Shown here: positions 2 through 8,275 of the stretch, piece after piece
How positions within the stretch are numbered: the first letter of the stretch is position 1
Layout: the number at the start of each line of letters is the position of its first letter
Assembly: GCA_003132025.1 (NCBI GenBank)
Contig: PKWJ01000037.1
Location: 1-64,000 of the forward strand
Direction of reading: 5' to 3'
DNA from: Gammaproteobacteria bacterium
GTDB taxonomy: Bacteria > Pseudomonadota > Gammaproteobacteria > Steroidobacterales > Steroidobacteraceae
Length of the DNA stretch: 64,000 nt
Position numbers and translations under genes: made by a program
The notes under the pieces: generated by a model
Databases searched by the model: none
Told to the model about the DNA's origin: nothing
The model's input: the letters and a program-made list of their open reading frames with translations, nothing else

Positions 2-730
2 CTGCCCGTGATCCTCGTGATCAACAAGGTCGATCGCCCCGACGCGCGCGTGGCGGAGGTCGTGGACGAGGTCTATGAGCTGTTCCTGGACCTAGACGCC
101 GACGAGCACCAGATCGAGTTCCCGATCGTCTACTGCAACGCCAGGGCCGGCCGGGCCTCACTTGACCCCGCCCAGGAGGGCACCAGCCTGCAGCCGCTGC
201 TCGATCTGCTGGTCGAGCACGTGCCGGTGCCCGAGTACGACCCCAGCCACCCGCTGCAGGCGCTGGTGTCGGAGCCGGTAAAGCCGGTGCTCGACTGCGT
301 CGTAATGTCGAACACCGTGCATGTTTATGTCAGCCAGTCCGACAAGGGCGAGCTGGTCATCGGCGCCGGGACCGACGCCTACACCTCCTACACCCAGCGC
401 GGCGGGCTGCACATCAGTGCCCACGCACTCGAGGCGGTATGCGAACTGTTTCCGATGTTTCGCCGGCTGCGCATGTTGCGCAACTGGGGCGGTATCGTCG
501 ACGTCACCCCGGATCGCTCACCGATCATCGCCAAAACGCCGGTACCGGGCCTGTACGTCAACTGCGGCTGGGGCACCGGCGGCTTCAAGGCCACCCCGGG
601 CGCCGCGCATCTGTTCGCCTGGACCATCGCCCACGATGAGCCGCATCCGATCAATGCGCCGTTCACCATTGAGCGCTTTCGCGACGGCCATCTGATCGAC
701 GAGGCTGCCGCGGCCGCGGTCGCACACTGA
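2..730 (+). CDS. Chimeric ORF: TypA/BipA GTPase fragment joined in frame to sarcosine oxidase beta C-terminus
   Basis: The reading frame is open at the window edge, so the 5' end is missing. About the first 80 residues read as the middle of the G domain of the TypA/BipA translational GTPase: an NKVD G4 motif, then [17 protein letters not shown], in the style of actinobacterial TypA. From [10 protein letters not shown] onward the protein is the C-terminal part of the sarcosine oxidase beta subunit (SoxB), with [13 protein letters not shown] and [13 protein letters not shown] normal SoxB has about 410 residues with an N-terminal FAD-binding fold; here only its last ~160 residues exist. The join falls at about 248-268, where both families carry a PLQALV-like stretch. 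soxD starts 10 bases downstream, so the SoxB part is in its normal operon place. This is most likely an assembly or recombination chimera rather than a working protein. Confidence 0.85.
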
Positions 731-740
731 AGACGTCCCG

Positions 741-1022
741 ATGTTACTGATCAGCTGCCCATATTGCGGCGCGCGCCCGGAACTGGAATTCACCCACGCC
801 GGCCAGGCGCACCTGGCGCGTGCGCGCGAGCCGGCGGCGGTAGGCGCACAGGACTGGGCGGATTTTTTATATATGCGCGACAACACCCGCGGCGTGCACG
901 CCGAGCGCTGGCGCCACACGCATGGGTGCGGCCGCTTTTTCAATGCGTTGCGCGACACCACCAGCGATCACTTCGTTGCCACCTACCGGGTCGGCGAGCC
1001 GCCGCCGCAGGGTGCGGCGTGA
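741..1022 (+). CDS. soxD: Sarcosine oxidase delta subunit
   Basis: The 93-aa protein is the small zinc-binding subunit of heterotetrameric sarcosine oxidase, which oxidises sarcosine to glycine and passes the methyl group to tetrahydrofolate in the cytoplasm. The N-terminal CPYCG pair and the later HGCGRFF supply the zinc ligands typical of the family, and the length is normal. The gene follows the SoxB fragment by 10 bases. Its TGA overlaps the GTG start of soxA as GTGA, pointing to translational coupling inside a soxBDAG operon. Confidence 0.95.
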   Translation: MLLISCPYCGARPELEFTHAGQAHLARAREPAAVGAQDWADFLYMRDNTRGVHAERWRHTHGCGRFFNALRDTTSDHFVATYRVGEPPPQGAA

Positions 1023-4000
1023 CCCAGGCGTTCCGCAGTGCCGACCGAGGACGCGTCGATCGTACGCGCCCGCTGCGCTTCAGCTTCGACGGTCGCAGCT
1101 ATGAGGGCCTCTCGGGTGACTCACTGGCCTCGGCGCTGCTCGCCAACGGCGTACACCTGATGGGCCGATCGTTCAAATATCATCGTCCGCGCGGCGTTCT
1201 TGCGGCTGGCGCCGAAGAACCCAGCGCACTGGTAAGCGTGCGCCGCGATGCTGCGCGCTACACCCCCAATCTGCGCGCCACCCAGGTCGAACTCTACGAC
1301 GGGCTGGAAGCCCACAGCCAGAATCGCTGGCCCAGCCTCAGCTTTGATGTCGGCGCAATCAGCGACCTGCTGTCACCGTTGTTTCCGGCAGGTTTCTATT
1401 ACAAGACTTTCATGTGGCCGCGCGGCGGCTGGAAAGCTCTCTACGAGCCCTGCATCCGCGCCGCCGCCGGTCTTGGCCGCGCGCCCCGAGAGGTCGATCC
1501 GGATCGCTATGCCAACCGCTACGCACATTGCGACGTCCTGGTCGTCGGCGGCGGCCCGGCAGGATTGGCCGCGGCGCTCGCCGCCGCCGACCGCGGCGCA
1601 CGCGTCATGCTGTGCGACGAGCAGGCGCAACTAGGCGGCTCGCTGCTGGCGGAAGCGTCCGGCGATCCCACCGATGCGTGGCTCGCGCGCAGCATCGAGT
1701 CGCTGCGTGCCCACGCCCGGGTGACGCTGTTGTCGCGCACCACCGCCTTCGGCTATTTCCCACACAACCTGATCGCACTCAATCAGCGCCTGACCGATCA
1801 TCTCGAGAATCCACGAGCCGGCCAGACCCGCGAGCGCTGCTGGCAGGTGCGTGCGCGGCAGGTGGTGCTCGCCACCGGTGCCATCGAGCGTCCCCTGGTG
1901 TTCCCGGGCAATGACCGGCCGGGCATCATGCTGGCGGCAGCGGCACGCAGTTTCCTCAATCGTTACGCAGTGGTGCCCGGCACGCGCGCGGTGGTGATCG
2001 CAGCCTGCGACGAGGCCTACCGGGCGGCGATCGAACTGCACCAGGCGGGCGTCGCCATCGCGATGATCGGCGATGTGCGGGCGCGCGCCGATGGCGACTG
2101 GCCCGAGGCGGCGCGCCGTGCCGGTCTGCCGGTGCAGACTCACACCACGGTGCTGGGCACCGAAGGCCGGCTGCGTATCAAGGCTGCGCGCCTGCTGCGC
2201 CTGGACACCGAGCGACGGCCGATCGGCGCCATTCAGTCCCACGCCTGCGACCTGCTGCTGATGTCGGGCGGCTTTACGCCCAGCGTGCACCTGCATTCGC
2301 AATCGCGCGGCAAACTGGCGTGGGACCAGCGCGTGCAGGGTTTTATCCCGGCGCAGGCCGCCGAACGCGTGCGTTCCGCCGGCTCATGTCGCGGGGTGTT
2401 TTCGCTGGCGGCAGCGATCGAGGATGGCGCTGACGCGGGTAGCTCGGCCGCAGGCGATGCGGCGGCGTGCACGACCGCCTTTCCTGCCGCACCGGACAGC
2501 TCGCGGGCAGCACCCGATGGCGCGATGGCGGGCTACGCCGGCGCCCTGCCCCAACCGCAAGCCGCGCCGGGCAGCAAGGCGTTTGTCGACTGGCAGAACG
2601 ACGTCACCACACGCGACCTGGCGCTGGCGCTGCGCGAGGGTTTCGTCTCGATCGAGCACATCAAACGCTACACCACCGCCGGCATGGCGACCGACCAGGG
2701 CAAGACTTCCAACTTGAACGCGCTCGGATTCGTCTCGCAGCGACTCGACAAGGCGATCGCTGAGGTCGGCCTGACCACTTTTCGCATGCCTTACACGCCG
2801 GTGACTTTCGGCAGCTTCGCCGGCTTTGCCCGCGGCGAGCTGTTCGACCCGGTACGAACAACGCCGATCCACGAGTGGGCCGTGCAACACGGCGCGGTAT
2901 TCGAGGATGTTGCCCTGTGGAAGCGCGCGCGCCATTTCCCGCAGGACGGCGAAGACCTGCACGCGGCGGTGGCGCGCGAGTGCCGTGCGGTGCGCGGCGG
3001 CTGCGGTATTTTCGATGCCTCGACGCTCGGCAAGATCGAAGTGGTGGGCCGGGATGCGGTCACGTTCATGAACCGCATGTACGCCAATGCCTGGACCAGC
3101 CTTGCGGTCGGGCGCTGCCGCTACGGCGTGCTGCTGCGCGAGGATGGGTTCGTGCTCGACGATGGCGTGGTCGCGCGCACCGCCGAGGATCGCTTCCATG
3201 TCACCACCACCACCGGCGGGGCCCCGCGTGTGCTGGCGCTGATGGAGGACTACCTGCAGACCGAATGGCCGGAGCTGCAGGTTTGGCTGACCTCGACCAC
3301 CGAGCAGTGGGCGGTGATCGCGCTCCAGGGCCCGAACTCGCGCCGCGTGCTGCAGTATCTGGTGCAGGACGTCGATCTGTCCGCCGCAGCGATGCCGCAC
3401 ATGAGCGTGGCGCGCGGCGCGATCTGCGGCGTGCCGGCGCTAGTGTTTCGCGTCAGCTTCACCGGCGAACTCGGGTTCGAAGTCAACGTACCGGCGGATT
3501 ACGCACTGGCGGTCTGGGCGGCGATCTACGAGGCGGGGGCCGCGCACGGCATCACCGCCTATGGCACCGAGGCCATGCACGTGCTGCGAGCCGAGAAGGG
3601 CTACATCATCATCGGCCAGGAGACCGACGGCACTGCGACCGCGGATGATGTCGGCCTCGGTTGGGCGGTCAGTAAGCTTAAGCCGGATTTCGTCGGCAAG
3701 CGCTCGCTGGCACGACTGGCGATGAGCGCACCCGATCGCCGGCAGCTGGTCGGCTTGCTGACCAGCGATCCGCAACTGGTGCTCGAGGAAGGAGCGCAGG
3801 TCATGCTTAGCTCCGGACAGCGCCCGCCCGCCCGGCCGATCGGTCATGTGACGTCGTCCTACTACAGCGCAACCCGGGAACGCTCGATCGCGCTGGCCAT
3901 GGTGGCCGGCGGCCGCTCGCGTGTCGGCCAGACCCTGTGCGTCGCAGCCACCAGCGGCGACGTGCCGGTGCAGGTCACGTCGCCGGTGTTCTTCGATCCG

Positions 4001-4024
4001 GAAGGAAAGCGCCTCGATGGTTGA
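1019..4024 (+). CDS. soxA: Sarcosine oxidase alpha subunit
   Basis: The 1001-aa protein matches the usual length of SoxA. An N-terminal 2Fe-2S-ferredoxin-like fold (around residues 20-110, SFKYHRPRG) is followed by a dinucleotide-binding motif VVGGGPAGLAAA near residue 174. The C-terminal ~400 residues form a GcvT/aminomethyltransferase-like domain that transfers the one-carbon unit to tetrahydrofolate. An Ala/Pro-rich low-complexity stretch around residues 465-520 separates the halves. The ORF track extends it to 764, but the GTG at 1019 overlapping the soxD stop is the sensible start; the extension would bury soxD. It acts with SoxB, SoxD and SoxG in sarcosine demethylation. The neighbouring SoxB is truncated here, so the complex could not form from this copy as sequenced. 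Confidence 0.95.
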   Translation: MTQAFRSADRGRVDRTRPLRFSFDGRSYEGLSGDSLASALLANGVHLMGRSFKYHRPRGVLAAGAEEPSALVSVRRDAARYTPNLRATQVELYDGLEAHSQNRWPSLSFDVGAISDLLSPLFPAGFYYKTFMWPRGGWKALYEPCIRAAAGLGRAPREVDPDRYANRYAHCDVLVVGGGPAGLAAALAAADRGARVMLCDEQAQLGGSLLAEASGDPTDAWLARSIESLRAHARVTLLSRTTAFGYFPHNLIALNQRLTDHLENPRAGQTRERCWQVRARQVVLATGAIERPLVFPGNDRPGIMLAAAARSFLNRYAVVPGTRAVVIAACDEAYRAAIELHQAGVAIAMIGDVRARADGDWPEAARRAGLPVQTHTTVLGTEGRLRIKAARLLRLDTERRPIGAIQSHACDLLLMSGGFTPSVHLHSQSRGKLAWDQRVQGFIPAQAAERVRSAGSCRGVFSLAAAIEDGADAGSSAAGDAAACTTAFPAAPDSSRAAPDGAMAGYAGALPQPQAAPGSKAFVDWQNDVTTRDLALALREGFVSIEHIKRYTTAGMATDQGKTSNLNALGFVSQRLDKAIAEVGLTTFRMPYTPVTFGSFAGFARGELFDPVRTTPIHEWAVQHGAVFEDVALWKRARHFPQDGEDLHAAVARECRAVRGGCGIFDASTLGKIEVVGRDAVTFMNRMYANAWTSLAVGRCRYGVLLREDGFVLDDGVVARTAEDRFHVTTTTGGAPRVLALMEDYLQTEWPELQVWLTSTTEQWAVIALQGPNSRRVLQYLVQDVDLSAAAMPHMSVARGAICGVPALVFRVSFTGELGFEVNVPADYALAVWAAIYEAGAAHGITAYGTEAMHVLRAEKGYIIIGQETDGTATADDVGLGWAVSKLKPDFVGKRSLARLAMSAPDRRQLVGLLTSDPQLVLEEGAQVMLSSGQRPPARPIGHVTSSYYSATRERSIALAMVAGGRSRVGQTLCVAATSGDVPVQVTSPVFFDPEGKRLDG

Positions 4025-4568: not shown

Positions 4569-4617
4569 GTGAGGTGTGGCGTGGCGTCGGCACGCCAAGC
4601 CACGTACGCTTAGCGCC

Positions 4618-5649
4618 ATGGACGCCCGGTCGAGCACGCTGCCCACGCACTTTGGCTTTCTGACCCTGCGCCAGTTCTCGATGATCGCCTTCACCAACGC
4701 CATCGAACCGCTGCGCATGGCCAATTACCTGGCCGAGCAGAGCATCTATCGCTGGTCGGTGTACACCTTCGACGGCCAGCCGGTGCCCGCCAGCAATGGC
4801 CTGACGGTGGCACAGACCGAGCGCATCGATGACGGCGCGCTGCCCGACATCCTGTTTGTCTGCGGCGGCGTCGACGTGCAGCACGTGGTGGACGATGCCC
4901 TGCTGCAATCGCTGCGCCGGCTGGCACGAAAGCGCATCGTGCTCGGAGCGCTGTGCACCGGCGCCTACGCGCTGGCCAAGGCCGGCCTGCTCGACGGCTA
5001 CCGCTGCGCGATTCATTGGGAAAACCTCTCGGCGCTACGCGAGACTTTCCCGCAAACCGAGTTCACGCCCGATTTGTTCGTCGTCGATCGCGACCGCTGC
5101 ACCTGCACCGGCGGCATCGCGCCGCTCGACCTGATGCTGCATCTGATCACCCCGCGCATCGGCAAGACACTCGCGGCCGGGATTTCCGACCAGTTCATCC
5201 TCGAGCGCGTGCGCGACGCGGACGACCCGCAGCGCATTCCGCTGGCGAAACGGCTCGGCGGCTATCACCGGTCACTGACCCAGGCCGCGGCGCTGATGGA
5301 GGCCAACGTCGAGGAACCACTGTCGCTGGAGGAACTGGCGCGCATGGCCGAGGTGTCGCAGCGCCAGCTGCAGCGCCTGTTTCGTCGCAGCCTGGGACTC
5401 ACCCCGGCGCAGTATTACCTCAATCTGAGGTTGCGCCGGGCGCGCGAATTGCTGCTGCAGACGGACATGCCCATCATGACCATCACCGTGGCTTGCGGTT
5501 TTCGCTCGCCGGCTCATTTCAGCAAATCCTATCGCGCGGTATTCGGCCATTCACCCAGCCGCCAGCGGCGTGATCCTGCCGGCAGCCGCAGCAAGCCCAA
5601 GCCCGGGCGCGCTGCGCGGCCGGCAACGCGCCACCAGCACGACCGGTGA
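4618..5649 (+). CDS. GlxA-family AraC regulator, GbdR-like
   Basis: The 343-aa protein has an N-terminal DJ-1/PfpI-like sensor domain (residues ~5-190, with LGALCTGAYALAKAGLLDG and the CTGGIAPLDL turn). Its C-terminal AraC helix-turn-helix pair includes LSLEELARMAEVSQRQLQRLF and the signature ACGFRSPAHFSKSYRAVFG. This architecture matches GbdR and related regulators that switch on glycine betaine, dimethylglycine and sarcosine catabolism. Its position between soxG and the dimethylglycine dehydrogenase gene fits that role. The ATG at 4618 is preferred because it gives the usual short N-terminus; a GTG at 4576 in the same frame is possible. The effector is inferred from context, not seen. Confidence 0.88.
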   Translation: MDARSSTLPTHFGFLTLRQFSMIAFTNAIEPLRMANYLAEQSIYRWSVYTFDGQPVPASNGLTVAQTERIDDGALPDILFVCGGVDVQHVVDDALLQSLRRLARKRIVLGALCTGAYALAKAGLLDGYRCAIHWENLSALRETFPQTEFTPDLFVVDRDRCTCTGGIAPLDLMLHLITPRIGKTLAAGISDQFILERVRDADDPQRIPLAKRLGGYHRSLTQAAALMEANVEEPLSLEELARMAEVSQRQLQRLFRRSLGLTPAQYYLNLRLRRARELLLQTDMPIMTITVACGFRSPAHFSKSYRAVFGHSPSRQRRDPAGSRSKPKPGRAARPATRHQHDR

Positions 5650-5815
5650 GCCACCAGCCACTGTCGGGAAAGCGCTGGTTTTTGTCACTTGCAGGCAACT
5701 CGCCGATGCACCGCGATACGACAATCGTGCACCGATCGGTAACTGCCTGCCGACGCGGCGGCACCCATGCAGCATCCAGCGGGTCTCGGAACGGGTTTCG
5801 AGCCGGAGACACTAT

Positions 5816-8275
5816 ATGAAGAGCCATGCGCGTGTGGTCGTGATCGGCGGTGGCGTCGTTGGCGTCAGCACCCTCTACCATCTGGTCAGGAAAGGCTGGA
5901 AGGATGTCGTCCTGCTGGAGCGCTCGGAACTGACCGCCGGATCCACCTGGCATGCGGCCGGCCTGCTGCCGCTGTTCAACATGAGCTATACCGTCGGCCA
6001 GCTGCACAAGTACTCGGTCGACCTGTACAAGCGCCTGCCGGGGGAGACCGGCCAGGAAGTCAGCTTCCATGTGAACGGCAACCTGCGCCTTGCTACCTGC
6101 GCTGCGCGCATGGACGAGTACCAGAAGTACTGCGGCACTGCTAACACCATCGGTGTTCCCTTCCAGGTGATCGGTCCGCAACAGGTCAAGGCGCTGTGGC
6201 CGCTGGTGAATCTCGGCGATGGCATCGATACACCGCGCATCGTCGGCGCCCTCTACCATCCCGACGACGGTCATATCGCTCCGGCCGACCTGACGATGGC
6301 GCTGCGCAAAGGCGCACGCAATGGCGGCGCCGACATCCACGAAAACTGCGAGGTCACCGCCGCGGCACGCAGCCCTTCAGGCGAATGGAGACTCACCACC
6401 AACCAGGGCGAGATCAGCTGCGAACACGTGGTATGCGCCACCGGTAACTACGCGCGCCAGACCGGCCGCATGTTCGGCGTCAACGTGCCGGCGATTCCGG
6501 TCGAGCACCAGTACATCGTCTACAGCGAGTCACCCGAACTCAAGGCCTACCGCGAGGGCGGCGGCCGCGAACTCGCGGTGCTGCGCGAATCCGACGCGTC
6601 TTATTATCTGCGCGAGGAGCGCCTGGGATGGATTCTCGGTCCATACGAGGCCGGAGCACCCGCCCGGTTTGCCGACGGCGTGCCCGAATGGTTCGGCAAG
6701 ACGCTATTCGAAGGCGACCTCGACCGGCTGCTGCCGCACGTGGAAGCCGCGCAGCGCCGCGTACCGGTGCTCGAGCACTGCGGCATCAAGGACATCGTCA
6801 ACGGTCCGATCTCGTACACGCCCGACGGCAGCCCGCTGATCGGACCGGCGGGCGGTCCGCCAAATCTGTGGCTCAACGAAGGCCATAGTTTCGGCATCAC
6901 CGCGGCCGGCGGCGCCGGCTGGCAGCTCGCCGAATGGATCGTCGAAGGCGAGCCCGGCATCGACATGCTGGCGGTGGATCCGAGGCGCTACGGCAGCTAC
7001 TGCACCAGGCGTTACGTGGTCACCAAGAACGAGGAGACCTACCGCAGCGTCTTCACGATCCACTTTCCCGACGAGGAGCGCCACGACGCTCGCCCGAGCA
7101 AGACCAGCCCGGTGTACGACAAGATCGACCGCCTCGGCGCCGTCTGGGGCCAGCGCTACGGCTGGGAACGCGCCAACTGGTTCGCTCCGCCCGGCGTCGA
7201 ACGCCGCGATGTGTGGAGTTTTCGCCGCAGCAATTATTTCGAGCACGTCGGGCGCGAATGCCGGATGATGCGCGAGCGGGTCGGCGTCATCGACCTGACG
7301 CCATTCACCAAGCACAAGGTCACCGGCGCCGGCGCCGAAAGCTGGCTCGACGGCCTGGTCGCCAACAAGGTGCCGGTCAAGCCAGGCCGCATCGCGCTCA
7401 GCCATGCGCTCACCAAGCGCGGCGGCATCCGTTCCGAGTTCACCATCACCAAGATTGGCGAACAGCACTACTACGTGATCAGCGCCGGCGCCGCTGAGCG
7501 CTACGATTCCGACTACCTGCAACGCATGCTGCCAAGCGACGGCTCGGTCAGCCTGCGCAACATCACCGGCAGCCGCGGCTGTTTCGTCGTCGCTGGCCCG
7601 CGTTCACGTGAACTGCTGGCGAAAATCGTCGATGTGCCGCTCGATAACGCCGCGTTTCCCTGGCTGACGGGCCAGGTAATCGAGGCCGGCTACGCCAGCG
7701 ACGTGTACGCGTTGCGCGTCAATTTCGTGGGCGCGCTGGGCTGGGAACTGCACTTCCCCATCGAGCACGCGCACCACCTGTTTGACGCCGTGTTCGCCGC
7801 CGGCAAGGAGTACGGCGTCGGCATGGTTGGCATGCGGGCGATGGAATCGCTGCGCATGGAAAAGTCGTACCGCATGTGGGGCAGCGACATGACGCGCGAC
7901 TATACGCCATTAGAGGCCGGCCTCGATCGCTTCGTGCGCATGAACAAGGGTGCCTTCATCGGTCGTGAAGCGCTCCAGCGCCAGCTCGCCGCCGGCGTGC
8001 CGCACCGCTTCGTGACCCTGGAGGCGCACGATGTGGGCGACGCCGATCCGCTCGGAAACGAGCCGATCTTCGCCGCCGACGCGAAAATCATTGGCCGCGC
8101 GACTTCCGGCTACTTCGGACACACGCTCGGCAAGAGCCTCGCGATCGGCTATGTACAGCCAGAGTACGCGGCGGTCGGCACTGAGCTTTCAATGGAGATC
8201 CTGGGCCTGCGACGACGGGCAACCGTGCTCATCGAATCGCCGTTCGATCCGGACAACAACGAACTGAAGGCCTGA
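5816..8275 (+). CDS. Dimethylglycine/sarcosine dehydrogenase family flavoprotein
   Basis: The 819-aa protein joins an N-terminal FAD-dependent amine oxidase (VVVIGGGVVGVSTLYHLV at residues ~6-23) to a C-terminal GcvT-like folate-binding half (from ~440), the layout of DMGDH/SARDH. The GSTWHAAGL motif carries the histidine used for covalent flavin attachment in this family. It oxidatively demethylates dimethylglycine or sarcosine and delivers formaldehyde-level carbon to tetrahydrofolate. The ATG at 5816 follows a GGAG ribosome site; the longer ORF in the track lacks homology upstream. With soxDAG upstream and a GbcA-like oxygenase one base downstream, dimethylglycine is the likelier substrate. 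Sarcosine, or another N-methylated amino acid, cannot be excluded. Confidence 0.9.
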   Translation: MKSHARVVVIGGGVVGVSTLYHLVRKGWKDVVLLERSELTAGSTWHAAGLLPLFNMSYTVGQLHKYSVDLYKRLPGETGQEVSFHVNGNLRLATCAARMDEYQKYCGTANTIGVPFQVIGPQQVKALWPLVNLGDGIDTPRIVGALYHPDDGHIAPADLTMALRKGARNGGADIHENCEVTAAARSPSGEWRLTTNQGEISCEHVVCATGNYARQTGRMFGVNVPAIPVEHQYIVYSESPELKAYREGGGRELAVLRESDASYYLREERLGWILGPYEAGAPARFADGVPEWFGKTLFEGDLDRLLPHVEAAQRRVPVLEHCGIKDIVNGPISYTPDGSPLIGPAGGPPNLWLNEGHSFGITAAGGAGWQLAEWIVEGEPGIDMLAVDPRRYGSYCTRRYVVTKNEETYRSVFTIHFPDEERHDARPSKTSPVYDKIDRLGAVWGQRYGWERANWFAPPGVERRDVWSFRRSNYFEHVGRECRMMRERVGVIDLTPFTKHKVTGAGAESWLDGLVANKVPVKPGRIALSHALTKRGGIRSEFTITKIGEQHYYVISAGAAERYDSDYLQRMLPSDGSVSLRNITGSRGCFVVAGPRSRELLAKIVDVPLDNAAFPWLTGQVIEAGYASDVYALRVNFVGALGWELHFPIEHAHHLFDAVFAAGKEYGVGMVGMRAMESLRMEKSYRMWGSDMTRDYTPLEAGLDRFVRMNKGAFIGREALQRQLAAGVPHRFVTLEAHDVGDADPLGNEPIFAADAKIIGRATSGYFGHTLGKSLAIGYVQPEYAAVGTELSMEILGLRRRATVLIESPFDPDNNELKA

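What the first reader, a model, noticed from the sequence alone, without database searches (positions are those of the whole stretch)
2..274. In-frame TypA-SoxB chimera joined at a shared PLQALV sequence
The first ~80 codons belong to the G domain of TypA/BipA, with an actinobacterial flavour ([14 protein letters not shown]). The rest is the C-terminus of SoxB sitting exactly where soxB should be. Both parent families contain a PLQALV-like stretch at the join (251-268), so a k-mer-sized identity or short-homology crossover would make this fusion. It also means the soxB gene appears broken here and taxonomic signals from the first 250 bases may mislead.
Basis: partly seen in the sequence, partly recalled or inferred. 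Interest (0 to 1): 0.75.

Follow-up and report, generated by a model that had tools for sequence, protein, structure and literature searches.

The report
Assembly chimera at a contig tip
The apparent TypA-SoxB fusion gene is almost certainly a genome-assembly error: about 244 bases from another bacterium (an actinobacterium) were stitched onto part of a sarcosine-oxidase gene at a short stretch that both genes can share, and the real first part of that gene lies on another contig of the same genome.

Summary
Confirmed and explained. ORF 2-730 is a TypA/BipA G-domain piece (residues 1-83) followed in frame by the C-terminus of sarcosine oxidase beta (SoxB, residues 82-234). It is an assembly artefact, not a gene. 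The window starts at base 1 of contig C59, so the TypA piece is the contig's extreme tip. The genome has its own TypA (C19), only 39% identical to the tip; the tip's relatives are mostly Thermoleophilia-type actinobacteria (70-84% aa). The soxB 5' end is on another contig: C5 ends after 86 soxB codons. In a same-genus genome the C5 end and C59 from base 245 onward align collinearly in one soxB locus, only 514 bases apart, so C59:1-244 is foreign. The join (245-268, HPLQALV) is where natural TypA and soxB genes can be identical for 22-23 bases (e.g. L059 and L026). Independently, many contig tips of this assembly share exactly 22 bases, the footprint of a graph word of about 22-23 bases. None of 59 relatives, 7 TypA-relative genomes or 80 TypA loci carries the fusion. 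soxB is split by an assembly gap, not shown to be broken in the organism.

The parts
2..244 (+). Foreign tip: internal fragment of the G domain of an actinobacterial-type typA (bipA)
   Evidence: TIGR01394 positions 117-197; 70-84% aa to Thermoleophilia-type actinobacteria, up to 82% nt; 39% aa to the genome's own TypA on C19; no counterpart in the same-genus soxB locus
245..268 (+). Join: (S)HPLQALV-coding stretch that natural typA and soxB genes can share exactly for 22-23 bases
   Evidence: soxB L026 identical to the window over 245-267, TypA L059 over 246-267; L059 and L026 identical to each other for 23 bases
245..730 (+). 3' part of soxB, sarcosine oxidase beta subunit; its 5' part lies at the end of contig C5
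   Evidence: TIGR01373 255-407; 91% aa to same-genus G008; C5 holds codons 1-86 and ends there
741..1022 (+). soxD, sarcosine oxidase delta subunit
   Evidence: TIGR01374, above curated cut-off
1019..4024 (+). soxA, sarcosine oxidase alpha subunit (start chosen by eye at the GTG overlapping the soxD stop)
   Evidence: TIGR01372, 1430 bits
4017..4568 (+). soxG, sarcosine oxidase gamma subunit (start chosen by eye)
   Evidence: PF04268, 8.5e-17

Best explanation
It is a chimeric contig tip made during metagenome assembly. Reads of the host (soxBDAG locus) and reads of an actinobacterium in the same sample share a word of about 22-23 bases at HPLQALV; the assembler, whose graph used a word of about that length, left soxB at that word and ran 244 bases into the typA of the other organism, where the contig ended. 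The host's soxB is normally laid out: 5' part at the end of C5, 3' part on C59 from base 245, with roughly 0.5 kb unassembled between. Shown: foreign affinity of 1-244, soxB split over two contig ends, words shared by natural parents, the 22-base tip signature. Inferred: that the join arose in the assembler rather than in a chimeric library molecule, and that the source is a metagenome.
For: Tip of contig; two families; own TypA elsewhere and only 39% identical; actinobacterial relatives; soxB 5' end at the end of C5; collinear same-genus locus with 514 bases between C5 end and C59:245; 22-23-base identity of natural parents at the join; many contig tips share exactly 22 bases, one tip is a 22-base palindrome; fusion absent elsewhere; such chimeric contigs are a described failure of de Bruijn assembly (PMC7299287).
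Against: No reads or assembly graph were available, so coverage at the join is unknown. The donor's own typA was not found, so exact identity of the donor at the join is not shown. GC content does not separate the two parts. The join is in frame, but any join at the in-register HPLQALV word would be.
Confidence: 0.95

Rival explanations
1. A chimeric library molecule (template switch or ligation at the same microhomology) was sequenced and became the contig tip. It is still an artefact, but made at the bench.
For: The foreign stretch is about as long as one read or a merged read pair (244 bases), and the microhomology would also favour template switching; nothing found here excludes it.
Against: The 22-base tip signature of the assembly explains the join without it, and a single chimeric molecule is usually outvoted by normal reads.
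Confidence: 0.03
2. A real rearrangement in the organism: a typA fragment acquired from an actinobacterium recombined with soxB and gave a fused reading frame.
For: The frame is open across the join.
Against: The foreign piece sits at the very contig end; the soxB 5' half survives at another contig end, in the position expected from a same-genus genome; no relative or TypA-relative genome has the fusion; the ORF is only an internal G-domain fragment joined to a C-terminal fragment, with no start region seen.
Confidence: 0.02

Closest known systems
Inter-species chimeric contig from a shared k-mer in de Bruijn-graph metagenome assembly
   Same: Sequence of two organisms joined at a word about as long as the assembly word, at a contig end next to an assembly gap
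   Different: Only that the shared word is in register in two unrelated coding genes, so the false fusion keeps an open reading frame
TypA/BipA translational GTPase (TIGR01394)
   Same: Bases 2-250 match profile positions 117-197, including the NKVD motif
   Different: Only an internal fragment, from another organism; the rest of the gene is absent from the contig
Sarcosine oxidase beta subunit SoxB (TIGR01373), heterotetrameric soxBDAG
   Same: Bases 245-730 match the C-terminal part of the profile and are followed by soxD, soxA, soxG
   Different: N-terminal part missing on this contig; codons 1-86 lie at the end of C5

Membership tests
Assembly chimera (artefact) | The two parts come from different organisms | tested here: met
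   Tip groups with actinobacterial TypA, host-type TypA separate at 100/100; soxB part 91% aa to the same genus
Assembly chimera (artefact) | The joined gene continues normally elsewhere in the same assembly | tested here: met
   soxB codons 1-86 at the end of C5; C5 and C59 collinear in G008 with 514 bases between
Assembly chimera (artefact) | The parents can share an exact word at the join as long as the assembly word | tested here: met
   22-23 bases for natural parents; 22-base shared tips in the assembly
Assembly chimera (artefact) | Coverage step or absence of spanning read pairs at the join | not testable with these tools
   No reads held
Genuine gene fusion | Present in independent genomes | tested here: not met
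   None in 59 relatives, 7 TypA-relative genomes or 80 TypA loci
TypA/BipA (TIGR01394) | Full-length match above the curated cut-off | tested here: not met
   93 bits against a cut-off of 757; positions 117-197 of 594
SoxB, sarcosine oxidase beta (TIGR01373) | Full-length match above the curated cut-off | tested here: not met
   261 bits against 529; only positions 255-407 on this contig, the rest being on C5 or unassembled

The most novel reading that the evidence does not exclude
A real in-vivo recombination between an acquired actinobacterial typA fragment and soxB at a microhomology of about 23 bases in this strain, giving an in-frame fused ORF.
Probability: 0.02. Interest if true: 0.35.

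Novelty: not a real feature. Interest (0 to 1): 0.05.

Why it matters
It matters only as data hygiene: the first 244 bases of this contig should be trimmed, the fused ORF should not be catalogued as a protein, and the genome should not be scored as having lost soxB. It is also a clean example of how a conserved peptide shared by unrelated genes gives an in-frame false fusion in a small-word assembly.

Tried and rejected
Looked for a second copy of the tip in the same genome: none. Looked for the donor among the 80 best genome-contig loci and 399 genomes of the class of the nearest relative: best 82% nt over the whole tip, so no donor was found among the genomes searched. Looked for the missing middle of soxB elsewhere in the genome: only a 53% paralogue on C53. 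Considered a conserved fusion: absent in all genomes examined. GC content of the tip is not different from the rest. Rfam gave nothing in the window. A literature search for a TypA-sarcosine oxidase fusion gave no relevant paper.

Full report
Observation. The ORF at 2-730 (+) is open at the contig start and reads 242 residues without a stop. Its first 81 residues match TypA/BipA (TIGR01394 positions 117-197, 1e-26) and residues 82-234 match the sarcosine oxidase beta subunit (TIGR01373 positions 255-407, 1e-77); downstream follow soxD, soxA and soxG. The chimera is therefore real as sequence.

Position. The window begins at base 1 of contig C59 (180,323 bases) of a 61-contig, 4.20-Mb genome with 97% completeness and 4.7% contamination. 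The TypA piece is the extreme tip of the contig.

Two organisms. The genome's own full-length typA (C19, 650-codon frame) is only 39% identical to the tip. The tip's relatives in public genomes are mostly actinobacterial, chiefly Solirubrobacterales and other Thermoleophilia, at 70-84% aa and up to 82% nt over the whole piece; a few are labelled Chloroflexi or otherwise. In a tree of the piece the host-type sequences form one side (100/100) and the tip lies among the others next to a Solirubrobacterales sequence (96/74; the alignment is too short to resolve more). The soxB side is 91% identical to a same-genus genome. GC content does not separate the two parts.

The rest of soxB. Searching the genome with the N-terminal part of the same-genus soxB finds contig C5, which ends after 86 soxB codons at 87% identity. 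In genome G008 the C5 end (up to two bases from its tip) and C59 from base 245 align to one locus on one strand, with 514 bases between them. So soxB is split by an assembly gap of about half a kilobase, and C59:1-244 has no counterpart there.

The join. Homology to soxB begins at 245 and similarity to TypA ends about 268. Natural members of the two families can be identical there: the soxB of L026 equals the window over 245-267, the TypA of L059 over 246-267, and L059 and L026 are identical to each other over 23 bases. Among 1760 TypA-soxB pairs there are 70 exact matches of 14 or more bases in register at this single place, against 113 spread over all other position pairs.

The assembler. 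Comparing 117 contig tips of the genome (six of them masked as N), several pairs share exactly 22 terminal bases: C25S-C26S, C60E-C19E, C14E-C29E, C1S-C52S, C3S-C21E, C7S-C46E, C15S-C54S, C36S-C35E, and the trio C12E-C39E-C50E (S = start, E = end); the start of C6 is a perfect 22-base palindrome. This is what contigs cut at forks of a graph with a word of about 22-23 bases would look like. C1S-C52S also share many more 20-mers further in, so that pair is partly a longer repeat. The tips of C59 and C5 share no such word with other tips of this genome; their partners would be in other organisms' contigs. A word of that length is as long as the identity at the join. The link between word size and chimera is inference. 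Chimeric contigs from k-mers shared between species are a described failure of metagenome assembly (PMC7299287).

Absence elsewhere. None of 59 relatives has a match spanning both parts; in seven genomes of TypA relatives the TypA frames are ordinary (609-1061 codons) and separate from any soxB; none of 80 TypA loci carries the soxB motif in frame, and all continue as TypA.

Conclusion. The fused ORF is an artefact, most likely of the assembler; a bench chimera and a true rearrangement are minor rivals. Read mapping is the remaining direct test.

Noticed in passing
contig tips of G000 (L128-L142, L148-L247): Several contig tips of this genome share exactly 22 terminal bases and one tip is a perfect 22-base palindrome, suggesting an assembly word of about 22-23 bases; other tips of this assembly may be chimeric too.
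   Followed up: partly
G000:C13, C31, C38 (L141, L164, L171): Both ends (400 bases each) of these three short contigs read N, i.e. masked in the stored data.
   Followed up: no
L081, L090: Actinobacterial-type TypA in MAG records labelled Rhodospirillales (L081) and Bifidobacterium breve (L090), which may be mis-binned or mislabelled contigs.
   Followed up: no
window 4576-8275: Downstream of soxG lie an ORF that by eye looks like a GlxA/AraC-type regulator (4576-5649) and one that by eye looks like a dimethylglycine/sarcosine dehydrogenase (within 5570-8275), a plausible glycine betaine demethylation cluster.
   Followed up: no
G000:C53:408744-409970: A second, intact soxB-like gene (50-53% aa identical, 439-codon frame), so the genome holds a paralogue.
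   Followed up: no
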